Shown: piece after piece, positions 612 to 11,442 of the stretch
Numbering within the stretch: position 1 is the first letter of the stretch
How the letters are laid out: every line of letters starts with the position of its first letter
DNA from: an uncultured Blautia sp.
Lineage (GTDB): Bacteria; Bacillota; Clostridia; Lachnospirales; Lachnospiraceae
Length of the DNA stretch: 14,781 bases
NCBI GenBank assembly: GCA_900552095.1
Contig: URYM01000022.1
Location: 1-14,781, forward strand
Reading direction: 5' to 3'
Made by a program: the position numbers and the translations under genes
The notes under the pieces: generated by a model
What the model was told of the DNA's origin: nothing
The model's database searches: none
Seen by the model: the letters and a program-made list of their open reading frames with translations, nothing else

Positions 612-639
612 ATTATACTGAAAAGGAGAAAAATTACAA
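612..639 (-). promoter_or_regulatory. Sigma-A-type promoter for the VOC gene
   Basis: On the minus strand TTGTAA (639-634) and TATAAT (617-612) are separated by 16 bases. The -35 covers the stop codon of the CHR gene and the -10 is 27 bases upstream of the VOC start codon. The perfect -10 makes this plausible, but read-through from the upstream operon is also possible because no terminator separates them. Confidence 0.5.
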
Positions 640-1194
640 CAGATAAAGGAGAGTGCCCAGAATTCCCGTCCCGAAAATGATGAGCACAGGGCTGACTTTC
701 CATTTCCGGAGCAGAAAGAAACTTCCCAGAAAAAGAACCGCCTCCACAATCCGAAAATCTGCGATCTGAAGATTTCCCAGTTCACTGTTAAAGAGAGCCA
801 GCAGCAGCAGAGACATTCCCGCACCGGCAATCATGGCAACGATCGCCGGGCGCAGCCCTGTGAGTATCCCCTGCATTCCCTTCAGATTCCGATACCGGAT
901 ATAGAGAAAGGAGAGCAGCAATACCAGCACAAAAGAAGGGAAGACGCAGCCGAAGGTGGCAATGACAGCCCCCGGCAGTCCAGCCACCTGAGTTCCCACA
1001 AAGGTAGCGCTGTTAATGGCAATAGGCCCCGGCGTCATCTCCGCGATCGTGATCAGATCGGCAAACTGCCCCATAGACAGCCACTGATTTGTCTCCACAA
1101 TCTGGCTCTGGATCAGGGGAACAGCCGCATATCCGCCGCCAAAACTGAAAAGTCCGATCTGAAAAAAACTCCAGAACAGCTGCAGATAGATCAT
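634..1194 (-). CDS. CHR (chromate transporter) family half-protein, second of a pair
   Basis: This 186-residue, very hydrophobic membrane protein belongs to the short-chain CHR family. It has FGGG at 18-21 in the first membrane segment and the conserved TPGPIAINSATFVG stretch from 54. I place the start at 1194, not at the in-frame ATG at 1326. The 1194 ATG follows a GGGAGGGGAG ribosome site and overlaps the upstream gene's stop as ATGA, while the longer form adds 44 hydrophilic residues lying inside the neighbouring gene. Short-chain CHR proteins occur as adjacent pairs that together equal one full-length ChrA. Characterised members move chromate, a sulfate analogue, out of the cell. Following directly on a PTS-sulfatase operon, a role in exporting sulfate is my inference. 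Confidence 0.88.
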   Translation of the reverse strand: MIYLQLFWSFFQIGLFSFGGGYAAVPLIQSQIVETNQWLSMGQFADLITIAEMTPGPIAINSATFVGTQVAGLPGAVIATFGCVFPSFVLVLLLSFLYIRYRNLKGMQGILTGLRPAIVAMIAGAGMSLLLLALFNSELGNLQIADFRIVEAVLFLGSFFLLRKWKVSPVLIIFGTGILGTLLYLL

Positions 1195-1775
1195 AAGCTC
1201 CCCTCCCTCTTTTCTTCCCCTCTGCTGTGGAGGAACCCGATCACTCCACAGATCAGAACAATGACAACAGCGCTCACCTTCAGAAAATAAGAGGCTATAA
1301 AAGATGCTGCCATCAGGAAGATCCACAGCGCACTTCCCGTCTTCCAGATATTCTGCGCCAGAGAAATCACCACGTCAAAAATAACAGCCGCCACCCCGGC
1401 TCTCATCACCTGCAGAGCCACCGCAATATACGGATTAGAAGAAAACTGATTATAGAAAACCGAGATCAGGGAAATGATCATCAGAGGCGGAATCACAGTA
1501 GCCACCGCCGCCGTCACCGCCCCGGAAATTCTTCTGACCCGGTATCCCACCACGATGGAGGCATTTACCGCAAGCGATCCCGGAGCCGACTGGGCAATAG
1601 CCGCCATGTCAAGCATTTCTCCTTCTTCCAGCCAGCCCAGTTCCTCTACAAACTTCTTCTTCATCATGGAAATGATCACAAAACCGCCGCCGAACGTGCA
1701 GGCACTTAAGACCAGATTTGCCCAGAACAGCCTGAGACAGCTGACCGGCACCTGCTTTCGTTCTTCTTTTTCCAT
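1191..1775 (-). CDS. CHR (chromate transporter) family half-protein, first of a pair
   Basis: This 194-residue polytopic membrane protein is the partner half of the CHR transporter. It carries FGGG at 28-31, SAPGSLAVNASIVVG from 63 and several long hydrophobic segments, and has a short charged N-terminus (MEKEERK) and C-terminus. A strong AAGGAGGG site precedes the ATG. It starts only 24 bases after the PTS IIA stop codon with no promoter or terminator visible between, so it should be on the PTS-sulfatase transcript. Its stop overlaps the next CHR start by four bases (ATGA), implying coupled translation of the two halves. 'Chromate transporter' is the family name. The physiological anion is unknown; sulfate fits this operon best. 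Confidence 0.88.
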   Translation of the reverse strand: MEKEERKQVPVSCLRLFWANLVLSACTFGGGFVIISMMKKKFVEELGWLEEGEMLDMAAIAQSAPGSLAVNASIVVGYRVRRISGAVTAAVATVIPPLMIISLISVFYNQFSSNPYIAVALQVMRAGVAAVIFDVVISLAQNIWKTGSALWIFLMAASFIASYFLKVSAVVIVLICGVIGFLHSRGEEKREGSL

Positions 1776-1799
1776 CTGCCTGCCCTCCTTCCGTCCAGC

Positions 1800-2243
1800 C
1801 TATATCTCAAAACTGTTAAACATTCCGGCTACGCTCTCCGGATCCTCCGCCCGGCATACCCGCTCCATATTTTCCTCATCGCTCAGAAGTCCGGCAATCA
1901 CCTGAAGTTTATCGATGTGGGAACTGTCATCCACAGCCGCCAGGGTGATCACTACGCGCACGGGACCCAGCTCGCTGCCAAAGTCAAGAGCCTGCCGAAG
2001 GGTCACAAGGCTGATGCCTGTTTTTAACACGTTTTCATCCGGCCTGGCATGCGCCAGGGCAAGTCCGGGGCCGATCACAATATACGGCCCGAACTCCTTC
2101 ACCCCTTCTATCGTCTTATCAATATATCCTTTTTTGATATAACCGCTCTTAACCAGAAGTTCCCCGGATTTCACCAGCGCTTCCTCCCAGGTATCCGCCT
2201 GCACCTGCAGCAAAATATTTTCTGTCTCTATTATGCAGCCCAT
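1800..2243 (-). CDS. PTS EIIA component, ascorbate/mannitol-fructose superfamily
   Basis: This 147-residue cytosolic phosphocarrier is close to the usual length of a stand-alone EIIA of this type. The phosphorylated histidine is His65 in PGLALAHARPDENV, which resembles the UlaC/SgaA version of the motif (APGIAxPHARPE). HPr-phosphate charges this histidine, which passes the phosphate to Cys11 of the EIIB encoded at 3744-4055. A CAGGAG site lies in the 13-base gap after the sulfatase stop codon, so the gene is translated from the same message. Splitting the PTS genes around a sulfatase (IIC, IIB, sulfatase, IIA) ties the enzyme to the transporter. The sugar cannot be read from this subunit. Confidence 0.9.
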   Translation of the reverse strand: MGCIIETENILLQVQADTWEEALVKSGELLVKSGYIKKGYIDKTIEGVKEFGPYIVIGPGLALAHARPDENVLKTGISLVTLRQALDFGSELGPVRVVITLAAVDDSSHIDKLQVIAGLLSDEENMERVCRAEDPESVAGMFNSFEI

Positions 2244-2256
2244 GTTCTCTCTCCTG

Positions 2257-3738
2257 TCACTTTAATCCCAGCCGCTCAAACTGCTCTGCCGGGCACTCAT
2301 TTTTCTCCATTTCTTTGATCAGCTTCTCCGCCATCTGCTGCTCCAGCGCTTCATCCTGAAGAGGAGAACACTCGCCCGGATCCTTCTCCAGGTCAAAAAG
2401 CAGATTTCCAAAACGTCCCACTCTGTACTTGTCCTTTCCTTTTACCTTCAGGACTCTGCAGCCTTTCGTAAAAGAGAAGGGGGAAACCAGTTCTGCCGTT
2501 TTCAGTTCCTCCGGCGTAAACCTCTGGTTCATATGAAGCGGCGTCAGCGTATAATTGTAAATCTCATTTACTTTCTCCGGAAGAGGCGCCCTCATATAGA
2601 CGTATTTTCCATCTGTGATATTTACATGTCCGCTGAACACGCCGAACAGAGCGCAATCCCTCACCTTTTTGTCCCGGGCTACGGTTTCTGCCAGATCCTT
2701 CCCCTGCATATCCTCCGGAACCTTCTGTCCGAAATAATTCAGAAGCGTGGGAGCCCAGTCGATCATCTGAACAAGAGCTTCTCTCCGCTCCCCTTTCACC
2801 CCGGATCGGGGATCCCAGATAAAGAGGGGATTATTGGCGATCTCATTATAATAAGGCATCTGGTTTTTCCCCCAGTGTCCATGCTCTGCCAGCAGGAATC
2901 CATGATCCGTCCCCACGATCAGCATGGTGTCTTTCCACATATCATACCGGTCCATCAGATCCAGCACCCGGCCCAGATTGTGATCGCACATGCTGACCAG
3001 CGCCTGGTACTGACGGCGGCAGTGGCGGATCGCCTCCTCATCCTCTTCCACCCGCCCTCTCGGCCAGTCAAAATGAGGTCCTTTATAATCTTCCGGATAC
3101 AGATCCAGATATTTCTGCGGCGCATAGAAGGGTTCATGGGGATCAAACGTTTCCAGCTGCAGCAGCCAGTTGTCCGCATCCTTATTCTTCTCGATGAACT
3201 CACACCCCCGGTCAAAGCACTGGGTCTGAGGAAAATCTTTCTCTTCCCGGATATACTGCCGGTTCACCCAGTCATAGCGCCACAGACCGGATTCTCCGGT
3301 ACCCGTCTGTTTCTGCGGCACCTTTACCACGGGAGGGATCTCCGGGCGCTCAACCTGCCCCTTCCAGTGATCTCCCTCCTGCCCCCGGATGATCTCCCAG
3401 GATGAATAGCGGTTATGATAGGTGGCGCCCCCATCCTCCCAGTAATGGAGATGGTCGCTGACCAGGTGGGTATATATGCCGTTCTTTTTCAGGATCTCCG
3501 GCATAGAATCATCAAAGGGCTCCAGCGGTCCCCACTCCCGGTGCAGGAAGTTATACCTTCCTGTATGAAGCTCTCTTCTTGCCGGCATACACGGCATGCT
3601 GCCCACATAACTGTTGTCAAAAACCGCCGTATGCTCTGCCAGTCTGGAAAAATTCGGCGCGATTGTGGTGCAGTCCGGACAGTACGGCGGCAGATAACGC
3701 TTATTTAAACTGTCATAAAATACAACTATCGCTCTCAT
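2257..3738 (-). CDS. Cytoplasmic Cys-type (formylglycine) sulfatase
   Basis: This 493-residue protein is a complete S1-family sulfatase of the alkaline phosphatase superfamily. The signature C-x-P-x-R-x4-TG is present as CMPARRELHTGR (50-61), where Cys50 would become formylglycine. Other visible elements are an N-terminal metal-site segment with Asp9 and Asn12 (YDSLNKRYL) and the C-terminal metal motif TDHG with Asp278-His279, followed by EHGHWGK and Lys291 as a likely catalytic lysine. There is no signal peptide or lipobox; the chain begins MRAIVVFYDS, already inside the fold. It therefore acts in the cytosol, unlike the exported sulfatases of Bacteroides. The start lies five bases after the IIB stop, suggesting translational coupling. 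The maturase at 6319-7410 supplies activation. The expected substrate is a sulfated sugar, possibly phosphorylated, delivered by the flanking PTS; its identity is unknown. Confidence 0.93.
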   Translation of the reverse strand: MRAIVVFYDSLNKRYLPPYCPDCTTIAPNFSRLAEHTAVFDNSYVGSMPCMPARRELHTGRYNFLHREWGPLEPFDDSMPEILKKNGIYTHLVSDHLHYWEDGGATYHNRYSSWEIIRGQEGDHWKGQVERPEIPPVVKVPQKQTGTGESGLWRYDWVNRQYIREEKDFPQTQCFDRGCEFIEKNKDADNWLLQLETFDPHEPFYAPQKYLDLYPEDYKGPHFDWPRGRVEEDEEAIRHCRRQYQALVSMCDHNLGRVLDLMDRYDMWKDTMLIVGTDHGFLLAEHGHWGKNQMPYYNEIANNPLFIWDPRSGVKGERREALVQMIDWAPTLLNYFGQKVPEDMQGKDLAETVARDKKVRDCALFGVFSGHVNITDGKYVYMRAPLPEKVNEIYNYTLTPLHMNQRFTPEELKTAELVSPFSFTKGCRVLKVKGKDKYRVGRFGNLLFDLEKDPGECSPLQDEALEQQMAEKLIKEMEKNECPAEQFERLGLK

Positions 3739-3743
3739 AAAAC

Positions 3744-4055
3744 CTACTTTCTGGCTGCCGGATAGAAGGCATCCACAATTTCTCCGATTTTTTTGGCAAT
3801 CCCCGGTCCATCCATGATATTGACCACTTCTACCAGATGGGTGTTCTCGTCAAATTTCAGTCCTTCTGCCAGTTTTTTGGAGATTGCCACCACATCAGCC
3901 CAGTCCCGAAGGGAATTCAGTTCTCCCACAGCGGTATGCTTCACCTCCGCGTTAATGCCCTCGGCCACCAGGCCTTTCTTCACCAGCATTTCCGCCACTG
4001 CGCTGCTTCCCAGTCCATATCCGCATACAAACAATACATGAATCTTATCTTTCAT
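3744..4055 (-). CDS. PTS EIIB component (Ula/SgaB-like, lactose/cellobiose IIB fold)
   Basis: This 103-residue soluble phosphotransfer protein has the P-loop-like active site VCGYGLGSS, with Cys11 as the phosphorylated residue. The length and the motif with serines after the glycines match EIIB of the ascorbate-type PTS. It accepts phosphate from EIIA His65 and donates it to the substrate bound in EIIC. It begins 31 bases after the IIC stop with an AAGGAG ribosome site and ends five bases before the sulfatase start, inside the same operon. Confidence 0.9.
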   Translation of the reverse strand: MKDKIHVLFVCGYGLGSSAVAEMLVKKGLVAEGINAEVKHTAVGELNSLRDWADVVAISKKLAEGLKFDENTHLVEVVNIMDGPGIAKKIGEIVDAFYPAARK

Positions 4056-4086
4056 CTTTTTTCTCTCCTTTTTCTTTCTTTATTCT

Positions 4087-5388
4087 TTATGCAAAGATAC
4101 CGCCGATCCAGTTCATAATCTGGGTGATTGCCGGCCATACCGTACTGAAATCAAACATTCCGGACCAGCCCACTCCCTGAGGATACTGCATAAGGGAAAT
4201 TGCCCAGATGGTTCCGAAAGACTGAATCATTCCCAGAAGGGTACAGCAGATAATAACCGCCTTGATTCCGCCCTTCTTATTTGCTACCACACCGATCGGA
4301 CCGCCGGAGAAGAACAGAGGCACAAATCCCGGAAGCACCATGATCGGGCTCTTAATCAAAACCAGAATTCCAATACTGATCACCGTTCCGATCGTACAGA
4401 AGATAAATCCCAGCGTTGCCGCATTGGGTGAGAAAGGCAGAAGCGCTGCCACATCGATAGCCGGGATCGCATTCGGCACCAGCTTCTCCTGGATTCCCTT
4501 GAAGGATTCCGTCAGTTCCGCGCACATCATACGCACACCGGTAAGCAGGATCACCATGTCCATGGAAAATGCGATTCCCACGCTGATAATATATACGATC
4601 CAGTTGTCCTTTCCTGCCAGTTCCTGAATTCCGGAAATACCCAGAGGCGCCATGAATCCGCCCACAAAGATCCACATGATCACACAGGTAGCTACCACGT
4701 TGTTGTTGAAAATCGAAAGCCAGCCCGGCAATTTTAAGTTCTCTGCATCCTGTTCTTTCTTTCCAAAGAAATGGGCAATCTTTCCGAAGAACCAGATACC
4801 AATCTGCTGATTGTGGCCTACGGTAAATCCGGCTCCTCCCGTCACATCGTCACAGACTTTTGCCGCCAGCGTAGTGGAGTAAGCCCAGTACACACCCACC
4901 AGAACACCAGTGATCACAACTGCCGCCGCGTTGCCTACCATCAGGTTGGCAAGCACCAGCCACAGGACAGACTGGGCATGCGCCGTGCCCGCATTTCCGG
5001 TGAGGAACACACCCTTTGCCTTGGTATATTTTCCAAAATAGACCAGAATAATGTTTACCGCAAAAGCGATCAGAAACGCATACCCCATGAGACCGAAACG
5101 ATCCCCCAGCGCTTCCTGGCTGGTCGCTTTCATCGCATAGGAATCCATAATATATCCCTGGATCCCCGTTGCCTCACTCACTGCTGTCACAATTGGTTTA
5201 AATGTGTTGGTGAACTGATTTCCTCCAAAAATCACCATCTGGATACCCACCATGGCGCTGATGGTTCCGGTGATCGTCTTCACCGTGCTCTCCCGCTTCA
5301 GCAGATAGCCGATACAGATCAGAAGACCGATCAGTATTACCGGTTTTGTGAGGAAATCATTCAGCAGAAAATCAAGTACTACATTCAT
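4087..5388 (-). CDS. PTS EIIC permease, UlaA/SgaT (ascorbate) family
   Basis: This 433-residue integral membrane protein has about ten or more hydrophobic segments, and its length fits the UlaA/SgaT family. Family hallmarks include FGGNQFTNTF (about 54-63) and the glycine-rich loop GGAGFTVGHNQQ (184-195). The characterised family member imports L-ascorbate and releases ascorbate 6-phosphate. Here none of the ascorbate-catabolic genes (lactonase, decarboxylase, epimerases) are present and a sulfatase is, so the substrate is probably a sulfated sugar or sugar acid instead. AGGAGG nine bases from the ATG fixes the start. It is the first gene after a promoter region containing tandem regulator-site candidates (5466-5547). 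Confidence 0.92.
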   Translation of the reverse strand: MNVVLDFLLNDFLTKPVILIGLLICIGYLLKRESTVKTITGTISAMVGIQMVIFGGNQFTNTFKPIVTAVSEATGIQGYIMDSYAMKATSQEALGDRFGLMGYAFLIAFAVNIILVYFGKYTKAKGVFLTGNAGTAHAQSVLWLVLANLMVGNAAAVVITGVLVGVYWAYSTTLAAKVCDDVTGGAGFTVGHNQQIGIWFFGKIAHFFGKKEQDAENLKLPGWLSIFNNNVVATCVIMWIFVGGFMAPLGISGIQELAGKDNWIVYIISVGIAFSMDMVILLTGVRMMCAELTESFKGIQEKLVPNAIPAIDVAALLPFSPNAATLGFIFCTIGTVISIGILVLIKSPIMVLPGFVPLFFSGGPIGVVANKKGGIKAVIICCTLLGMIQSFGTIWAISLMQYPQGVGWSGMFDFSTVWPAITQIMNWIGGIFA

Positions 5389-5410
5389 TTACATACCCTC
5401 CCTTTTTCAT

Positions 5411-5462
5411 AAAAAAATAAGATAAAACCACCCGTTTCCTTTTCTGGATAGTCTTATCTTAT
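5411..5462 (-). terminator. Possible conditional terminator between the regulator and the PTS genes
   Basis: A perfect 9-bp inverted repeat (5417-5425 ATAAGATAA with 5454-5462 TTATCTTAT) is followed on the minus strand by seven Ts (5417-5411). It could stop transcripts coming from the maturase-regulator genes. The stem is AT-only apart from one G-C pair and the loop is 28 bases, so it is weak. The upstream arm overlaps the -10 of the PTS promoter. A transcript started there would lack that arm and could not form the hairpin, so the element could separate the two units without blocking the PTS promoter. Confidence 0.35.
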
Positions 5463-5485
5463 CATTTTTAGTCTATTTCAGTCAA
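5456..5485 (-). promoter_or_regulatory. Promoter for IIC-IIB-sulfatase-IIA-CHR operon
   Basis: On the minus strand TTGACT (5485-5480) and TAAGAT (5461-5456) lie 18 bases apart, with a TGA just before the -10. This would start transcription near 5449 and give a leader of about 60 bases before the IIC ATG. The -35 lies inside one copy of the 10-bp repeat described at 5466-5547, which suits repression. Confidence 0.5.
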
Positions 5486-5547
5486 TATTACTCATATACT
5501 CTTTTGATTTTCGTATATTATAATAATTTTTTGACTATTTTTGACTA
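5466..5547. repeat. Two tandem pairs of a 10-bp repeat, candidate DeoR operators
   Basis: Four copies fit TTTYWGWCWA. The first pair, TTTTAGTCTA and TTTCAGTCAA, is at 5466-5485. The second pair, TTTTTGACTA twice in perfect tandem, is at 5528-5547. Within each pair the copies are 10 bp apart, one helical turn; the pairs are 62 bp apart, about six turns. The first pair covers the -35 of the PTS promoter and the last copy ends in the regulator's stop codon. The spacing on one helix face and the link to the DeoR gene suggest operators that could form a loop. Binding is inferred. Confidence 0.55.
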
Positions 5548-6306
5548 TTTCCCTTTTCTCTTCCAAATATACGCCTGTTTTTCTTGTGCAAATTGCTCAA
5601 ACCCTTCCACCTGCCGGTCTGTAATAATGTTCAAATAGCTGACCAGTTCCTTCGGTGTGACATACATAGCCGTTCTGTTAAACTTGGTGTGATCCGCCAG
5701 GATATACGTCTCCCGGGCGTTGCGGATACAGATATTTTTAATGTCATACTCATACTCATCTGCAGAGAGGGGTGCAAAATCCGCATCGAATCCCTTGATC
5801 CCCAGAAAAGCCTTGTCAAACCGGTAGGAAGCCAGCATCTTCGTCGTCTGCCTTCCCACCACAGACCGGGAGTATTCCTTAAAAAAGCCGCAGAGGAGAA
5901 ACACATTGATCCCCCTTCTGGAGAGGGCTTCCAGCTGCGGAATACCATTGGTGATCACCGTAATGTCCCTGGCTGTAATACACTCTGCCATAGCCAGCGT
6001 CGTCTTGCCCGGTCCCAGAAAGATCAGTTCTCCATCCTGCACTTTGCTGGCCGCCAGTTCCCCGATCACTCTCATCGGCCCTGTGAGATTGCCTTCCTCC
6101 ACCTTTCTCTTATACAGACTGACATCCCGGATCCTCTGTGCTCCTCCCCAGAGACGGCTTAAGATGCCCTCTTTTTCCATGGCAGCCAGATCCCTCTGAA
6201 CGGTAGAGGGCGAAACCCCCAGCGCCTCCTCCAGCTGCTTTTTACTCACGATCTCATTTTCAGCCAGAAGCTCTTTTATCTTTTCTTTTCGCAGTTCGTA
6301 GGTCAT
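5545..6306 (-). CDS. DeoR/GlpR-family transcriptional regulator of the sulfatase-PTS locus
   Basis: This 253-residue protein has the standard family length. The N-terminal helix-turn-helix (about 20-42) runs into the family signature SPSTVQRDLAAMEKEGILSR and then WGGA. The C-terminal effector domain, of the sugar-phosphate isomerase-like fold, shows GPGKTT (98-103), an NG pair at 120-121 and ADHTKF (204-209). DeoR-family members are usually repressors released by a phosphorylated sugar, which suits a PTS that produces one. The ribosome site GAGGAGGG overlaps the maturase stop codon and the gap is 12 bases, so it is co-transcribed with the maturase. Candidate sites upstream of IIC and of the maturase share the core TTCAGTCA, suggesting it controls both units. 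Confidence 0.93.
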   Translation of the reverse strand: MTYELRKEKIKELLAENEIVSKKQLEEALGVSPSTVQRDLAAMEKEGILSRLWGGAQRIRDVSLYKRKVEEGNLTGPMRVIGELAASKVQDGELIFLGPGKTTLAMAECITARDITVITNGIPQLEALSRRGINVFLLCGFFKEYSRSVVGRQTTKMLASYRFDKAFLGIKGFDADFAPLSADEYEYDIKNICIRNARETYILADHTKFNRTAMYVTPKELVSYLNIITDRQVEGFEQFAQEKQAYIWKRKGK

Positions 6307-6318
6307 ATGCTCCCTCCT

Positions 6319-7410
6319 CTACAGCCGGGCCCGGGCCAGACGGGCCAGCCTCTCCCCGCAGGTCTCAAAAAACTTCCGATATGCGGCACAGAAACAGTGT
6401 TTCCCCTGCTCCCCTTCCCGGTATCTGCGGCAGCCTCCGCGGCACAGCGCTGCCCAGGGGCATTTCCGGCACTCCTCCGGCAGGGAAATCTCTTCCAGAA
6501 ACCCTTTTTTCTCCCGGTTTCGATCGATTTCTTCCCATCCCTCCCGCTTTATATCTCCGATCTTCCACTGATCCAGCGCATAAAAATCGCAGGGATATAC
6601 GCTTCCATCCGCCTCGATCACATAATTTTTTCCGCACCGCCCCCGCATATCGCAGGCCTCCGGCTCATAGCCGGAAAGCATATCCACATAATTGTCAAAC
6701 TGGCGGATCCATACCTGCTCTCCCCTGCAGAGCTCGTCATACCACAGGTCAAAAATACGGCACAGAAAATCCCCATATTCTTCTCCGCTCAGGGAATATG
6801 CGCTCTTTTCTTTCCCGCCCAGCGGATCCATGCAGGGAATAAACTGCAGATGATCAAATCCCTGTTTTCGCAGGAAGCGGTATACCTTATCCGCTGTTCT
6901 GGCCACATCCCCGGTTACTACAGTCAGTATATTAAAGGGAACCCGATATCTGTTCAGGCTGTCAATCCCTTCCATCACCCGCCGGAACGTGCCCTCCCCC
7001 CGGATATTCTTTCTCCAGCGGTCATGGGTATGGATGGTTCCGTCCAGAGACACTCCCACCAGGAAACGGTTTTCCTGAAAAAAACGGGCCCACCGGTCAT
7101 CCAGCGTATATCCATTCGTCTGAATAAAATAAAAGATTTCCAGATCATCTCTCTTCTGTCTCTTCACGCACTCCACAAACTCCTGAAAATATTCCAGGCC
7201 CCAGAGTGTTGGTTCTCCCCCCTGGAATCCGAACGTACAGCTTCCTTCTGCCTGCTGCAGAGCCTTCCGGATCAGCACTTCCATCGTCTCCCGGTTCATA
7301 AATCCATAGGAAGCTGTTCCCCGGTTTTCCATCTCATCACAGTAAAAACAGTAGGCGCAGCGCAGATTGCAGGCTCCGGAAGCCGGCTTGATCATCAGCG
7401 ATAACGGCAT
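6319..7410 (-). CDS. Anaerobic sulfatase-maturating enzyme (radical SAM/SPASM)
   Basis: This 363-residue radical-SAM enzyme has the length and layout of clostridial anSME. CNLRCAYC (14-21) binds the catalytic 4Fe-4S cluster and SAM, and FQGGEPTLWG (62-71) is the glycine-rich SAM motif. A C-terminal SPASM region holds cysteines at 253, 259, 274, 314, 317, 323, 327 and 339/341 for two auxiliary clusters. Asp275 in YPCDFYAL is the residue expected to act as catalytic base. It oxidises the sulfatase Cys (or Ser) to formylglycine without oxygen. Its only visible client is Cys50 of the sulfatase at 2257-3738. A GGGAGGA site precedes the ATG. The gene leads the unit, with its own promoter (7455-7483) and palindromic operator (7432-7456), and is followed by the DeoR gene. 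Confidence 0.95.
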   Translation of the reverse strand: MPLSLMIKPASGACNLRCAYCFYCDEMENRGTASYGFMNRETMEVLIRKALQQAEGSCTFGFQGGEPTLWGLEYFQEFVECVKRQKRDDLEIFYFIQTNGYTLDDRWARFFQENRFLVGVSLDGTIHTHDRWRKNIRGEGTFRRVMEGIDSLNRYRVPFNILTVVTGDVARTADKVYRFLRKQGFDHLQFIPCMDPLGGKEKSAYSLSGEEYGDFLCRIFDLWYDELCRGEQVWIRQFDNYVDMLSGYEPEACDMRGRCGKNYVIEADGSVYPCDFYALDQWKIGDIKREGWEEIDRNREKKGFLEEISLPEECRKCPWAALCRGGCRRYREGEQGKHCFCAAYRKFFETCGERLARLARARL

Positions 7411-7559: not shown

Positions 7560-8327
7560 TTACTGCGCACACATTCTGGGAACGATCATGCCGTTTTTCA
7601 TCCTGCATACGCTCCCGTACAGTTCTTCAAGACAATCCTGAGTCAGAACCTGATCCACCTGTCCCTCTTCCAGCACCTGTCCTTCCTTCAGGACCAGTAC
7701 CTGCTCACAAAACCACTTCACATGGTTGGGATCATGCATACAGGCGATCACAAGACGTCCACTGTCTGCCATGTCCCGCAGGATCTCAAATACCCTCAGC
7801 TGATTTTTGAAATCCAGAGCCGATGTGGGTTCATCCAGGATCACTACCGGCGTATCCTGAGCCACTGCCCGGGCCAGAAGCACCAGCTGCCGCTGCCCGC
7901 CCGAGAGCTGGGTGTAGATCTTCTCTTTGATCGCACTAATCCCGATTTCTTCTATCGCCTGCTCCGCCCGTTCTGTGTCTGCTCTGGACGGATTTCCCAG
8001 TCCTCCCAGGTGAGGCGTTCTGCCCATGAGAACAACCTCCTCCACCGTAAAAGGAAAGGAGAGACGGTGCTCCTGAGGCACATACGCGATCTTCCGGCTC
8101 CTCTCCCTGCAGGAGAGTGCGGAAATATTTTTTCCGCCCAGCTCGGCCGCTCCTCTCTGCGGTTTCAAAATTCCTGTACAGCATTTCAGCAGCGTTGTCT
8201 TCCCGGATCCGTTAGGTCCGAACACCCCATGCATACCTGCCCCGCCAAATCCGGCGCAGACACCTTTCAGGATTTCCCCCTGTCCGTAGGAAAAATGCAG
8301 TCCCTCCACTCTGATCGTTTCACTCAT
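7560..8327 (-). CDS. ABC transporter ATPase, FecE/BtuD type
   Basis: This 255-residue nucleotide-binding subunit serves a type II importer for ferric chelates, heme, cobalamin or similar complexes. All motifs are intact: Walker A GPNGSGKTT (37-45), Q-loop Gln85, signature LSGGQRQ (141-147), Walker B VVILDE (161-166), D-loop SALD and switch His198 in MHDP. Its start overlaps the permease stop by four bases (ATGA), so the two are coupled in translation. It is the last gene of the operon, with a terminator seven bases beyond. Length and motifs are typical. The transported compound cannot be read from the ATPase. Confidence 0.94.
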   Translation of the reverse strand: MSETIRVEGLHFSYGQGEILKGVCAGFGGAGMHGVFGPNGSGKTTLLKCCTGILKPQRGAAELGGKNISALSCRERSRKIAYVPQEHRLSFPFTVEEVVLMGRTPHLGGLGNPSRADTERAEQAIEEIGISAIKEKIYTQLSGGQRQLVLLARAVAQDTPVVILDEPTSALDFKNQLRVFEILRDMADSGRLVIACMHDPNHVKWFCEQVLVLKEGQVLEEGQVDQVLTQDCLEELYGSVCRMKNGMIVPRMCAQ

Positions 8328-9349
8328 TCAAAATACACCTTTCTGTTATGTCTCAGCAGGAAGATCAGATAAGGCGCTCCCAGAACTGAGGTGAGAATGC
8401 TGACCGGAAGTTCTCCCATGATCAGCGTCCTGGCAAGAGTATCACAGATTACCATGAAGATTCCTCCCAGACAGGCGGAAAAAGGAATCATATAGCGGTG
8501 ATCCGGTCCGAGAATCATCCGCGCCGCATGGGGCACCATAAGTCCTACCCAGGAAATAATACCGGACTCTGCCACGCAGGAGGCTGTGAGAAAGGTAGCC
8601 GCAAGGATAAGGACAAACTTCAGCCTGCCGGTATGAATTCCCAGAGACCTGGCTTCCGCATCCCCCATGGCCAGCACATTCAGTTTCCATCCGCAGCCCC
8701 AGATCAGGACAAGTCCCCCCAGAGTAAGAAGAAAGAGCCGCACTGCGCCTTCCCACTCCGCCGTGTAAAATCCTCCCATCGTCCAGAAGGTAATCTCCCG
8801 GAGTTTACTGTCAGAAGCCATCACCTTCAGAAAATTCAGAAGCGCTGTAAAAACCGCTGAAACGATCATTCCCGACAGGATCAGCCGCACCACCGGCATA
8901 TTTTCCCGGCTGTATGCCATTCCGTAAGCCAGAAGCATAGCCAGAACGGCGAATAAAAATGCGGCTGTATTTTTCGTAAGAAATCCCCAGGAAAATACAA
9001 TGCTGGCCGCCGCCCCAAACGCCGCTCCCGAAGAGACGCCCAGAACATAAGGCTCCACCAGAGGATTGCGGAAGACCCCCTGAAAAACCGCTCCCGAAAT
9101 GCTCAGAGCCACTCCGGTCATCGCGGCGGTCAGGATACGTGGAAGACGGATTTCCCACACGATCGTGTCCAGACTGGCATCCGGCCAGGTATTTCCCCGC
9201 AGGTGTGCAGAAATCACTCCCAGAATATCCCCTGTTTTCATCTCATAGTTGCCGAACTGCACAGCTCCGGCCAGAACTGCCAGGAAGACCGCAAGTCCTC
9301 CCCAGAGCCAGATACTTTTATGTTTTTTCCATTTACCCATATGTTTCAT
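8324..9349 (-). CDS. ABC transporter permease, FecCD/BtuC family
   Basis: This 341-residue membrane protein has roughly ten hydrophobic segments, the family's usual size. The N-terminal half has the EIRLPRILTAAMTG segment and then FRNPLVEPYVLGVSSGAAFG. The C-terminal half has GIISWVGLMVPHAARMILGPDHRYMIP split by the usual coupling helix that contacts the ATPase. It would form a homodimer moving a chelated metal or corrinoid from the binding lipoprotein at 10107-11300. The chosen ATG at 9349 overlaps the methyltransferase gene by 17 bases. An alternative ATG three codons later (9340) is possible and no strong ribosome site decides between them. Translation is probably coupled to the upstream gene. 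Confidence 0.93.
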   Translation of the reverse strand: MKHMGKWKKHKSIWLWGGLAVFLAVLAGAVQFGNYEMKTGDILGVISAHLRGNTWPDASLDTIVWEIRLPRILTAAMTGVALSISGAVFQGVFRNPLVEPYVLGVSSGAAFGAAASIVFSWGFLTKNTAAFLFAVLAMLLAYGMAYSRENMPVVRLILSGMIVSAVFTALLNFLKVMASDSKLREITFWTMGGFYTAEWEGAVRLFLLTLGGLVLIWGCGWKLNVLAMGDAEARSLGIHTGRLKFVLILAATFLTASCVAESGIISWVGLMVPHAARMILGPDHRYMIPFSACLGGIFMVICDTLARTLIMGELPVSILTSVLGAPYLIFLLRHNRKVYFE

Positions 9350-10097
9350 CCATCACATTCCAGGAAATTCTTCCATATCGGGTCAGATCCCGGTAGTACC
9401 AGATCTCCCCCCGCCTTTCCAGCCGTTCTTCCAGATAACTCCGCAGCTCTCTCTCTTCCCCGTCAGAAATCTCATAGCGCATCTTCATATCCTGAACCGC
9501 TCTCTCAAAGTCCGGATATTCCCGGTCAAAAGAAGTACCGGAAAGCATCGTAATATCACTGTAGATCCCCATCCGGCACAGCGTCTGGTAAAAGCTGTCA
9601 ATCTTCGGTGCCTGACCCTTTCTGGTCTCCCGTCCCAATCGCTCCTCCAGAATCCGGCGGTCCCTCTCCCAGGAAGTTTCTCCCGCAAACCAGTACAATT
9701 CCACCCGGCCGCCGGCATGGCGGTTCATCTTTCTGACCGCCTCCTCAAAATCCGGCATCATCAGAGAATAAGAAGCAAGGATCAGATCGTACGTTTCCAG
9801 CAATTCTTCCGGAAGTTCTTCCCAGGTGTAGGGAAGTATCTTAATCTCTGTCATCTGCTCTTCTTCCATATGGCGGCACAGCAGTTCCCGCATAGCCCCG
9901 GAGGGTTCCGCCGCAGTCACACGGCACCCCCGCCCGGCCAGCGGAAGGGACAGGATTCCCGGGCCGCTTCCGATGTCCAGCACCGACATTCCCGGGGTTA
10001 CTGCCATTTCCCCTGCTCTCTTTCTGCCGTCCTCCCAGATTCTGACGGAACTGTCATATCGCCGTGCCGCTTCCCGGTCTTCATACTGATTCTTCAT
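9333..10097 (-). CDS. Class I SAM-dependent methyltransferase within the FecBCD operon
   Basis: This 254-residue protein has a Rossmann methyltransferase core. Motif I is VLDIGSGPG (39-47) and the post-I acidic residue is Glu64 in AAEPS. A ubiE/Methyltransf_11-like core runs to about residue 140, and a basic and acidic C-terminal half of about 110 residues of unknown role follows. An AAGGAGGG ribosome site overlaps the binding-protein stop codon, with a 9-base gap. The gene then overlaps the permease by 17 bases, so it is an integral member of the import operon rather than a neighbour. It may methylate the imported chelate or a partner metabolite, but no substrate-specific motif is recognisable and the function is open. 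Confidence 0.82.
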   Translation of the reverse strand: MKNQYEDREAARRYDSSVRIWEDGRKRAGEMAVTPGMSVLDIGSGPGILSLPLAGRGCRVTAAEPSGAMRELLCRHMEEEQMTEIKILPYTWEELPEELLETYDLILASYSLMMPDFEEAVRKMNRHAGGRVELYWFAGETSWERDRRILEERLGRETRKGQAPKIDSFYQTLCRMGIYSDITMLSGTSFDREYPDFERAVQDMKMRYEISDGEERELRSYLEERLERRGEIWYYRDLTRYGRISWNVMDETYG

Positions 10098-10106
10098 ATT
10101 CCCTCC

Positions 10107-11300
10107 TTAGAATCCCCGCGCATCCATCCAGTCCAGCTGCTGGATTTCTTTTATCTTCTGCGCCTCTTCGTCTGTCAGGCCGTAGAGTGTTTTGTGATAC
10201 TCATTCAGCCACTCGCCCACCTGCACATCCGCAAACTGCTCCGGATACGCGGATTTCGCTGCAATCAGCAGAATCGTCGGGAATTCCAGCCGGAAATCTC
10301 CCCACCAGGTCAGAAGCCCCACAGAAGTCACCCTTCCATTCTTTACCGCAGATACATTCTGCAGGTTGGCGTAAGCCGGATCCTCCGATAAAATATTCGG
10401 ATCGGGGCGCACGGAATTGGTACACAGGATCATCACATCCGGATCCAGCGTAATGATCTGTTCTGCGGACATATTTGTGCGCTCAGATTCTGTATATACA
10501 TTCTTTATATTGGCATACTCCGTGCTGAATTTGGCGTCTCCGAAATTCTCTCCCCAGACTACACCCACACCCTCGTCCTTGCGAAGTCCGATATACATCA
10601 CTTCCGGCTTTTCTGCTTCCGGTATATCCTTCGTTCGATCCTGGATCATGGAAACCTGTTCCTTCATATAAGAAATGATCTCTTCCGCCCGCTCCTCTTT
10701 TCCGAAGATTTCTCCCAGAAGTTCAATTCCTTCATAGTGATAATCCAGCTTTGCCTCCTCATAACAGCCCGGCCCGTTAATTACAAACAGCGGAAGCTTC
10801 ATATCTTCCTCTATCTTCCGAATCGCGTCGGCAGTAACCTCACTGTCTTTGATATATTCACTGTTTCTTAAAATAACCAGATCCGGATCCGCCGCTGCCA
10901 GCGTCTCAAAATCCACAGCATCCGTGGGATAACCAATGATCGGAAGTTCCATGATCTCCGGGAAAAGATACAGACTGTCCCTCTCCTCCGGATCTCCCAC
11001 TTCCGTGATCAGACCTCCGGTAGCGCAGATCTTATCTTCCACTCCCAGCGCCTTCATAGACTGCACCAGAAATCCTTTATCCAAAATAGCAACCCTCTGG
11101 GGATCTTCCGGCACTTCCACCTCTTCCCCTCTCATGTCTGTCAGGATTCTTCCCTTTTTCTGTGTCTCATCCGCTGCCTCCGCAGTCTGCCCGCTTCCTT
11201 TTTCATCCTCTTTTTTTGTTCCTCCGCAGCCGGCCAGTCCGCTTATCATCAGGCATCCGCTCAGCAGAAGCGCTGTCATTCTTTTTACTTTCTTTCTCAT
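10107..11300 (-). CDS. Substrate-binding lipoprotein, FecB/BtuF family
   Basis: This is a 397-residue precursor. A positively charged start (MRKKVKR), a hydrophobic segment and the lipobox GLAGC put the lipid-modified cysteine at residue 25, followed by a Gly/Lys/Glu linker. The periplasmic-binding domain of helical-backbone type (PF01497-like) spans about 50-370, including the opening MRGEEVEVPEDPQRVAILD. I chose the ATG at 11300 because of the AGGAGG site just upstream and the signal peptide that begins there. The in-frame ATG at 11438 would add 46 residues with no matching leader and run through the galE terminator. Lipoproteins of this type capture ferric-siderophore, heme, cobalamin or other metal complexes outside the membrane. 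No cobalamin riboswitch or Fur box is evident upstream, so the ligand is unresolved. Confidence 0.9.
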   Translation of the reverse strand: MRKKVKRMTALLLSGCLMISGLAGCGGTKKEDEKGSGQTAEAADETQKKGRILTDMRGEEVEVPEDPQRVAILDKGFLVQSMKALGVEDKICATGGLITEVGDPEERDSLYLFPEIMELPIIGYPTDAVDFETLAAADPDLVILRNSEYIKDSEVTADAIRKIEEDMKLPLFVINGPGCYEEAKLDYHYEGIELLGEIFGKEERAEEIISYMKEQVSMIQDRTKDIPEAEKPEVMYIGLRKDEGVGVVWGENFGDAKFSTEYANIKNVYTESERTNMSAEQIITLDPDVMILCTNSVRPDPNILSEDPAYANLQNVSAVKNGRVTSVGLLTWWGDFRLEFPTILLIAAKSAYPEQFADVQVGEWLNEYHKTLYGLTDEEAQKIKEIQQLDWMDARGF

Positions 11301-11339
11301 CTGTCTTCCTCCTGTTTTCTGCATATGTATCTTCACTCT

Positions 11340-11377
11340 ATCATATCCCCCATACCGCCACAAGCCCCCCCGGGGGG
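11340..11377 (-). promoter_or_regulatory. Candidate promoter with a C6G6 palindrome at the -35 position
   Basis: On the minus strand a good -10, TATGAT, lies at 11345-11340. No -35 matches at the proper distance. Instead, the perfect 12-bp palindrome CCCCCCGGGGGG (11366-11377) sits there, and a second ATCCCCC/GGGGGAT inverted pair encloses it. This could be an activator-dependent promoter or a metal-regulator site for the ABC operon. It remains speculative. Confidence 0.35.
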
Positions 11378-11401
11378 ATGAAACTTCCGCCGGCTCTGCA
11401 C

Positions 11402-11442
11402 AAAAAAAACGGATACAGATCTGTTTCAGAATCTGCATCCGT
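11402..11442 (-). terminator. Rho-independent terminator of the galK-galE operon
   Basis: ACGGATACAGAT (11409-11420) pairs with ATCTGCATCCGT (11431-11442) over 12 positions, with one G-U, around a 10-base loop that itself closes CTG/CAG. On the minus strand eight Ts follow. It is a textbook intrinsic terminator 48 bases after the galE stop. Confidence 0.93.

What the first reader, a model, noticed from the sequence alone, without database searches (positions are those of the whole stretch)
634..7410. Candidate PTS-coupled intracellular desulfation system (maturase, DeoR, PTS IIC/IIB, sulfatase, IIA, CHR pair)
Seen: a Cys-type sulfatase with no export signal lies between the IIB and IIA genes of a Ula-type PTS, preceded by its dedicated anaerobic maturase and a DeoR regulator and followed within 24 bases by two CHR genes. 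Known: anSME activates Cys-type sulfatases, UlaA-family IIC phosphorylates its substrate at C6 during uptake, and well-studied gut sulfatases act outside the cytoplasm. Inferred: the cell imports an intact sulfated sugar or sugar acid, phosphorylates it and desulfates it inside, keeping sugar and sulfate from competitors. Because phosphorylation probably needs a free C6 hydroxyl, substrates sulfated at C2, C3 or C4 (for example galactose 3-sulfate, a 4-sulfated hexosamine or ascorbate 2-sulfate) fit better than 6-sulfated ones. The absence of ascorbate-breakdown genes argues against plain ascorbate.
Basis: partly seen in the sequence, partly recalled or inferred. Interest (0 to 1): 0.82.

Follow-up and report, generated by a model that had tools for sequence, protein, structure and literature searches.

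The report
Probable vitamin C sulfate uptake operon
A gut bacterium's gene cluster probably imports a sulfated form of vitamin C, tags it with phosphate on the way in, and removes the sulfate inside the cell, so that the ordinary vitamin C pathway can use it; related clusters occur in other gut bacteria, including about one E. coli genome in ten.

Summary
Eight consecutive genes encode an anaerobic sulfatase maturase, a DeoR regulator, Ula-type PTS IIC and IIB, a Cys-type S1 sulfatase without export signal, IIA, and two overlapping CHR genes. The IIC-IIB-sulfatase core recurs in clostridial relatives, Erysipelotrichaceae, Bacillus and Enterobacteriaceae (552 of 5426 complete E. coli genomes). 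Two database proteins fuse the sulfatase to IIA, which supports desulfation in the cytoplasm.

The evidence points to a sulfated L-ascorbate, most likely ascorbate 2-sulfate. Ascorbate genes (UlaG, UlaE, UlaF, in Bacillus also UlaD) lie near the cassette in several relatives. UlaG passes its curated cut-off in 13 of 15 genomes with this sulfatase type, against 28 of 299 in the clostridial family sample. The IIC keeps much of UlaA's ascorbate pocket but has smaller residues on one face. An eight-residue signature marks one sulfatase clade, tied to Ula-type PTS or ascorbate genes.

Not shown: any enzyme activity, the sulfate position, or ascorbate genes in the window's own genome (not held). Clostridial relatives mostly lack a clear UlaD. 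A PTS-plus-sulfatase island was already proposed in pneumococcus: a new variant of a known kind.

The parts
6319..7410 (-). anaerobic sulfatase maturase (anSME, radical SAM/SPASM)
   Evidence: TIGR03942 393.4 bits, cut-off 349; 70% relative heads the same cluster in L008
5545..6306 (-). DeoR-family regulator
   Evidence: PF00455, PF08220; 83% and 81% relatives at the same place in L008 and L019
5410..5470 (-). inverted repeat followed by a T run in the DeoR-IIC gap; possible operator or leader hairpin
   Evidence: fold -22.6 kcal/mol, z -4.81; similar paired arms with changed letters in L008 and L019, compared by eye; not found by the consensus terminator scan
4087..5388 (-). PTS IIC, Ula (ascorbate) type, distinct clade
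   Evidence: NF009550 646 bits, cut-off 583; UlaA 4rp8 336.9 bits; pocket table
3744..4055 (-). PTS IIB
   Evidence: PF02302; CGYGLGSS loop in the translation
2257..3738 (-). cytoplasmic Cys-type S1 sulfatase with the 8-residue signature E68 G146 S150 G276 N292 Y296 W328 F368
   Evidence: PF00884; signature and tree
3577..3591 (-). formylglycine motif C50-M-P-A-R54
   Evidence: translation; invariant in A1 except position 51
1800..2243 (-). PTS IIA
   Evidence: PF00359; fused to the sulfatase in P0004 and P0023
1191..1775 (-). CHR family, first half of the pair; putative sulfate export
   Evidence: PF02417
634..1194 (-). CHR family, second half of the pair; putative sulfate export
   Evidence: PF02417; start codon; CHR pairs also by the sulfatase in L008 and L009

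Best explanation
The operon is for using a sulfated L-ascorbate, most likely ascorbate 2-sulfate. The Ula-type IIC imports it and IIA/IIB phosphorylate it, by analogy with UlaABC at C6, giving ascorbate sulfate 6-phosphate. The cytoplasmic sulfatase, activated by the anSME encoded beside it, releases sulfate and leaves ascorbate 6-phosphate, which enters the ordinary Ula pathway (UlaG lactonase onward) encoded elsewhere in the genome. The CHR pair probably exports the sulfate, and DeoR probably represses the operon. Shown here: gene order, families, fusions, co-occurrence, clade signatures. Inferred: substrate, sulfate position, phosphorylated carbon, export, regulation.
For: (1) Gene linkage: Bacillus FJAT-50079 (L018) has UlaG, UlaD, UlaE, UlaF, two Ula-type PTS, two sulfatases and an FGE in one cluster; Bacillus SD088 (L017) has UlaG, UlaD, UlaE, UlaF divergent from IIC-IIB-sulfatase. 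UlaG scores 540-647 bits against a cut-off of 306 in L013, L017 and L018; in L018 a 3-dehydro-L-gulonate-6-phosphate decarboxylase subfamily model, L-ribulose-5-phosphate 3-epimerase and 4-epimerase models also pass (the narrower UlaD equivalog does not, 260.5 of 294). In G314 a UlaG-IIA-IIC-IIB operon lies about 5 kb from the sulfatase, in G012 UlaG about 15 kb. (2) Co-occurrence: among genomes with a signature sulfatase, UlaG is over cut-off in 10 of 12 and in three more (G234, G314, G497), so 13 of 15. In the 299-genome family sample of G012, 4 of 4 signature genomes have UlaG against 24 of 295 others, Fisher p 6e-5. (3) The closest relative, G001 with the same operon, has a separate UlaG-IIA-IIC-IIB-DeoR-UlaE-UlaF operon. 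(4) In the same 299 genomes the cassette-type IIC (550 bits or more) occurs in exactly the four signature genomes; the next hit is 310 bits. (5) IIC pocket, UlaA positions from PMC6048161: H194, R288, D314 and F362 kept in all 19 cassette rows (13 distinct genes); 135/136/139/195/59 change from H/I/Q/Q/S to N (once Q), A/T/S, A/S, N, G. (6) Sulfatase signature: 7-8 of 8 in 21 of 117 sequences, forming one clade (support 1.0), at most 3 of 8 in the other 96; two genomes scored only after the set was chosen, G314 and G497, match 7 and 8. (7) Sulfatase-IIA fusions. (8) Exporter genes beside the sulfatase: CHR pair in the window, L008, L009; TauE in L010, L011, L135: 6 of 19 signature loci against 0 of 74 others.
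Against: No activity or growth data. The window's own genome is not held, so its UlaG cannot be checked. UlaD passes its cut-off in only 5 of 15 signature genomes, all of them Enterobacteriaceae or Bacillus. L012 and L013 carry a signature sulfatase with UlaG and UlaF but Tct-like transport genes and no Ula PTS. Non-signature sulfatases also co-occur with UlaG more than expected (6 of 20 genomes, p 0.003), so the association is not exclusive to this clade. L060 lacks Tyr87 in IIC, and G001's ordinary Ula IIC also has Asn135. The IIC does not reach NCBI's ascorbate-specific IIC model (350.7 of 380). G003 has no UlaG (its cassette contig is 3 kb; completeness not told) and G007 has only two partial matches cut off by runs of N. 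The Erysipelotrichaceae and Enterobacteriaceae samples alone are not significant (2 of 2 each, p 0.08 and 0.10). The exporter count used query proteins taken from signature loci, which favours them.
Confidence: 0.7

Rival explanations
1. The same scheme (PTS import, desulfation inside) but for a non-ascorbate sulfated sugar, for example galactose 3-sulfate or a 4-sulfated hexosamine, with the phosphorylated sugar entering another core pathway.
For: No ascorbate genes in the window; galK and galE lie nearby and a galE fragment directly precedes the anSME in L008; a Lac-type PTS-sulfatase island in pneumococcus was assigned to sulphated glycans (PMC3302838, passages).
Against: UlaG linkage and co-occurrence; IIC pocket; GalK acts on unphosphorylated galactose (recalled), so it does not fit a PTS product.
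Confidence: 0.17
2. The operon serves sulfur supply: ascorbate or another compound is only the carrier, and the released sulfate is assimilated.
For: A sulfatase releases sulfate; bacteria use sulfate esters as sulfur source (general knowledge).
Against: CHR or TauE family genes stand beside the sulfatase in 6 of 19 signature loci, which fits export rather than retention, though transport by them was not tested; PTS and DeoR are typical of carbon use.
Confidence: 0.06
3. The hydrolase is not a sulfatase but acts on a phosphate or phosphonate ester of ascorbate, as some FGly enzymes of the alkaline phosphatase superfamily do.
For: Phosphonate monoester hydrolases are among the hits.
Against: Hits to sulfatases rank above them; TauE or CHR neighbours.
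Confidence: 0.05

Closest known systems
L-ascorbate PTS and Ula regulon (UlaABC, UlaG, UlaD, UlaE, UlaF)
   Same: IIC of the UlaA family (336.9 bits to UlaA 4rp8), separate IIB and IIA, DeoR-type regulator, UlaG elsewhere in relatives' genomes
   Different: IIC forms its own clade with smaller residues at several ascorbate-binding positions; a sulfatase and its maturase are built in; no lactonase in the operon
Pneumococcal Lac-type PTS-sulfatase island (SPH1922-1929; PMC3302838 and PMC3283741, passages seen)
   Same: PTS, sulfatase, sulfatase-modifying enzyme and a TauE exporter in one operon; uptake of sulphated sugars proposed there
   Different: Lac-family PTS rather than Ula; substrate unknown and no sulfatase activity detected there with a fluorogenic substrate; no ascorbate genes mentioned for it in the passages seen
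Sulfatase inserted in the Sebaldella termitidis ula regulon (PMC3219644, passages seen)
   Same: a sulfatase among ula genes
   Different: named there only as an inserted gene; not examined here, so whether it has the signature is unknown
S1 sulfatases with solved structures (for example 7oz8, 7lha, 6g5z)
   Same: alkaline phosphatase fold, CxPxR motif
   Different: 15-21% identity in the 50 Foldseek rows listed; no signal peptide here

Membership tests
L-ascorbate PTS (TC 4.A.7, UlaABC) | IIC of the EIIC-GAT/UlaA family | tested here: met
   PF03611 338.6 bits; UlaA 4rp8 336.9 bits
L-ascorbate PTS (TC 4.A.7, UlaABC) | score over NCBI's ascorbate-specific IIC model | tested here: not met
   NF006919 350.7 bits, cut-off 380; it passes NF009550 (substrate not named) instead
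L-ascorbate PTS (TC 4.A.7, UlaABC) | ascorbate-binding residues of UlaA | tested here: inconclusive
   window IIC keeps Y87, H194, R288, D314, F362, M410; differs at 59, 86, 135, 136, 139, 195, 358
L-ascorbate PTS (TC 4.A.7, UlaABC) | transport and C6 phosphorylation of ascorbate | not testable with these tools
   needs assay
Ula ascorbate pathway | UlaG in the same genome | tested here: inconclusive
   13 of 15 relatives' genomes with a signature sulfatase over cut-off; the window's genome is not held
Ula ascorbate pathway | UlaD in the same genome | tested here: not met
   5 of 15 relatives' genomes over cut-off; missing or below cut-off in the clostridial and Erysipelotrichaceae relatives; the window's genome is not held
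S1 formylglycine sulfatase | C/S-x-P-x-R motif and sulfatase domain | tested here: met
   CMPAR, PF00884 111.7 bits
S1 formylglycine sulfatase | maturase available | tested here: met
   anSME in the operon
S1 formylglycine sulfatase | sulfate ester hydrolysis | not testable with these tools
   needs assay
known S1 subfamily of extracellular polymer-active enzymes | close sequence match to a solved member and an export signal | tested here: not met
   best solved relative 78 bits, 15-21% identity; no signal peptide by inspection; SulfAtlas assignment could not be run
CHR transporter pair | two short Chromate_transp proteins in tandem | tested here: met
   PF02417 144 and 171 bits
CHR transporter pair | sulfate export | not testable with these tools
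   needs assay

The most novel reading that the evidence does not exclude
A previously unrecognised catabolic route for vitamin C sulfate (ascorbate 2-sulfate, a metabolite measured in a human cohort): a dedicated Ula-type PTS clade and a cytoplasmic sulfatase clade evolved together and occur in gut Firmicutes, Bacillus and Enterobacteriaceae, including about 10% of complete E. coli genomes.
Probability: 0.6. Interest if true: 0.82.

Novelty: new variant of a known kind. Interest (0 to 1): 0.72.

Why it matters
It gives a testable function to an accessory block found in 552 of 5426 complete E. coli genomes and in several gut Firmicutes. If right, gut bacteria can feed on a conjugate of vitamin C by importing it intact, which keeps carbon from competitors. 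It also defines sequence marks (IIC pocket, sulfatase signature) by which such systems can be recognised and annotated.

Tried and rejected
Rejected: plain ascorbate as the substrate (a sulfatase is built into the operon, and relatives such as G001, G012 and G234 have a separate Ula operon with its own PTS). Galactose chemistry from the nearby galK and galE: kept only as a low rival. Literature: ten searches. Searches on sulfatase with PTS (one found no paper) gave as precedents the two pneumococcus papers (PMC3302838, PMC3283741; passages read) and one sentence on Sebaldella (PMC3219644; passages read); the other papers in those listings were seen only as listings. One search (ascorbate 2-sulfate, sulfatase, bacteria; 2 of 3 terms needed) listed 20 of 3,204 papers, all 20 with zero occurrences of ascorbate 2-sulfate. 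One search on ascorbate sulfate names found 71 papers, 30 listed, mostly metabolomics by title and abstract start; passages of one (PMC11322087) were read. One search listed 10 of 1,403 papers, none relevant. One search led to PMC6048161 (passages read). So no report of a bacterial ascorbate 2-sulfate operon was seen, within this library and these listings only.

The AlphaFold model (mean pLDDT 77.5, from an alignment of 16) was poor around the active site and gave no coordinates, so the signature residues could not be placed in space; it was used only for the fold search. A deeper alignment was given up after two failed calls. Distances of IIC, IIB and sulfatase correlate across 16 loci (sulfatase-IIC Pearson 0.84), but shared ancestry alone can give that, so it carries little weight. 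A Fisher test on exporters used a wrong count (6 of 17 against 0 of 67); the set was recounted (6 of 19 against 0 of 74). One search also printed a wrong start coordinate for the second CHR gene; one search corrects it. A sample of 299 genomes of the class of G011 gave only G011 itself with a close sulfatase and one at 51%, so that class added no independent case and its UlaG background was not measured.
Full report
What is there. The window carries, on the minus strand, anSME (7410-6319), DeoR (6306-5545), Ula-type IIC (5388-4087), IIB (4055-3744), a Cys-type S1 sulfatase (3738-2257), IIA (2243-1800) and two CHR genes (1775-1191 and, from ATG 1194, to 634). The gaps are short except for 156 nt between DeoR and IIC. 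The sulfatase starts directly with its catalytic core and has no export signal by inspection.

Conservation. A scan of one-genome-per-species contigs returned 80 loci encoding relatives of the sulfatase (the best 80 of 540 confirmed). In 11 of 80 a Ula-type IIC and IIB lie by it: directly upstream in 10 (L008, L010, L011, L014-L019, L060) and rearranged in L009; two more close relatives (L012, L013) have no Ula PTS. By record titles the hosts include Lachnospiraceae and other clostridia, Dielma (Erysipelotrichaceae), Bacillus, Yokenella (Enterobacteriaceae) and Salmonella. In E. coli, 552 of 5426 complete genomes hold the IIC-IIB-sulfatase block with at least 80% of the query covered, one place each (402 at 99% identity or more and 150 at 90-95% to the query strain). 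It lies between rlmC and artJ in the two strains viewed; in the first an IS1 interrupts the IIC. An Enterobacter plasmid has the same trio. Among the 120 listed homologues two, P0004 (643 aa, 28 member sequences) and P0023 (635 aa), fuse the sulfatase to IIA and carry the full signature.

Link to ascorbate. Recurrent neighbours included UlaG and UlaF. In Bacillus L018 one cluster holds UlaG, UlaD, UlaE, UlaF, two Ula-type PTS, two sulfatases and an FGE maturase; in Bacillus L017 UlaG, UlaD, UlaE and UlaF face the cassette. UlaG in L013, L017 and L018 and epimerase and decarboxylase models in L018 exceed curated cut-offs; the narrow UlaD equivalog does not (260.5 of 294). L012 and L013 combine Tct-like transport genes (labelled by eye), UlaG, UlaF and a signature sulfatase. 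Operons with UlaG, IIA, IIC, UlaE and UlaF and a DeoR gene occur in G001, G012, G234 and G004, with IIB labelled in the first three. G314 has UlaG-IIA-IIC-IIB about 5 kb from its sulfatase. G001 is the genome of L008, the closest relative of the window with the same operon. So the pathway is available in trans in relatives; the window's own genome is not held.

Co-occurrence. UlaG is over its cut-off in 10 of 12 genomes reached through these loci; of the other two, G007 has two partial matches cut off by runs of N and G003 has none. The tool does not name family samples. That of G012 (Clostridium porci; Clostridiaceae in NCBI) also contains G002, titled Lachnospiraceae, so it is probably GTDB's Lachnospiraceae (recalled). 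UlaG is over cut-off in 28 of 299 there, 40 of 145 in the family of G007 and 48 of 149 in the family of G009. Genomes with a signature sulfatase numbered 4, 2 and 2; all have UlaG, counting G007's partial matches. Only the first comparison is significant alone (4 of 4 against 24 of 295, p 6e-5; the others p 0.08 and 0.10). Five of these eight were known carriers, chosen for the sulfatase and not for UlaG; G234, G314 and G497 were new. Against exclusivity, 6 of 20 genomes of the first sample with a more distant sulfatase also have UlaG (p 0.003). In the same 299 genomes the cassette IIC type (550 bits or more) appears in exactly the four signature genomes; the next best hit is 310 bits.

IIC pocket. 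PMC6048161 (passages) lists the residues of UlaA around vitamin C. In 31 aligned IIC rows, 19 are cassette rows from 13 distinct genes. They keep H194, R288, D314 and F362, but carry G59 (where covered), N195, N135 (Q in L018), A/T/S at 136 and A/S at 139, where Enterobacteriaceae UlaA has S, Q, H, I and Q. Exceptions: L060 has V87 instead of Y87; the three enterobacterial cassettes have I410; G001's ordinary Ula IIC also has N135; L140 has T136, C139 and N195. Smaller side chains on one face fit an ascorbate with an added group; this is inference, because no coordinates could be examined. The cassette IICs form one clade (support 0.93).

Sulfatase signature. Comparing 15 cassette-group sulfatases with 67 others gave 13 positions fixed or nearly fixed in the first and different in the second (L035, L042, L052 and L069 were left out). 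I took eight of the 13 (E68 G146 S150 G276 N292 Y296 W328 F368), with the letters of L060 in view, so the match of L060 is partly by choice. Over 117 sequences, duplicates included, 21 match at 7-8 positions and the other 96 at no more than 3; the 21 form one clade with support 1.0. With all 13 positions and 149 sequences the gap stays: 29 match at 10 or more, the rest at 3 or fewer; G314 and G497, scored only then, match 12 and 13. The 120 listed homologues match 7 or 8 of the eight. L060 matches all eight at 56% overall identity, while L105 at 59% matches 2.

Maturation and sulfate. The window, L008 and L011 have an anSME beside the cassette and L018 an FGE. CHR pairs lie by the sulfatase in the window, L008 and L009, and TauE genes in L010, L011 and L135: 6 of 19 signature loci against 0 of 74 others (p 4e-5). 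The queries were one TauE and the window's CHR proteins, which favours signature loci; an annotated short TauE near the distant relative in L004 was missed. Sulfate export is the likely role and is inferred.

Mechanism and limits. PTS uptake phosphorylates during entry, so the sulfatase should meet a 6-phosphate. In L134 and L170 (G005, G006) a non-signature sulfatase stands with a kinase gene (FGGY by Pfam in L134), UlaG, UlaE and UlaF, with a Tct-like gene upstream, which suggests a second route in which desulfation precedes phosphorylation; only the L134 sulfatase was scored for the signature (0 of 8). UlaD passes its cut-off in only 5 of 15 signature genomes; clostridial Ula operons instead carry a roughly 349-residue gene without a confident family, so the step after UlaG is open there. 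No activity has been shown for any part.

Relation to known systems. A Lac-type PTS with sulfatase, modifying enzyme and TauE was proposed in pneumococcus for sulphated sugars (PMC3302838, PMC3283741; passages), and a sulfatase was noted as an insertion in the Sebaldella ula regulon (PMC3219644; passages). Ascorbate 2-sulfate is a metabolite measured in a human cohort (PMC11322087; passages). That the Ula-type cassette serves ascorbate sulfate was not seen in the ten searches made.

Noticed in passing
L137:13294-14343, with relatives in L132, L134, L136, L169, L170, L138, L167, L012, L013: A roughly 349-residue protein, no Pfam family for the L137 copy and only a weak FG-GAP match for the L134 copy, recurs in clostridial and Erysipelotrichaceae Ula clusters where UlaD is mostly missing; a candidate for the missing step.
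   Followed up: partly
L014:14336-17425, L018:4692-7908: A second Ula-like IIC-IIB pair followed by a different sulfatase; its IIC has N87, K139 and N410 at the ascorbate-binding positions.
   Followed up: partly
L134:1813-9140, L170:6178-13181: Sulfatase of the wider family (54-55% identity) with a sugar kinase gene, UlaG, UlaE and UlaF, and a Tct-like gene upstream: a possible non-PTS route.
   Followed up: partly
window 5410-5470: Inverted repeat with a T run before IIC, with changed but still pairing arms in L008 and L019 (compared by eye); operator or leader hairpin.
   Followed up: partly
L002:5465-6880: An annotated aryl-sulfate sulfotransferase gene stands next to the Enterobacter IIC-IIB-sulfatase trio, and an annotated anSME gene lies about 6.5 kb further upstream.
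   Followed up: no
window 7560-11438: Genes that look like an ABC transporter (ATPase, permease, binding protein; by eye) and a methyltransferase lie between galE and the anSME; in L008 a galE fragment is followed directly by the anSME.
   Followed up: no
L051:5318-13598: A distant relative of the sulfatase stands among genes that look like a nucleoside ABC transporter, a nucleoside phosphorylase and an anSME (labels by eye, except the anSME).
   Followed up: no
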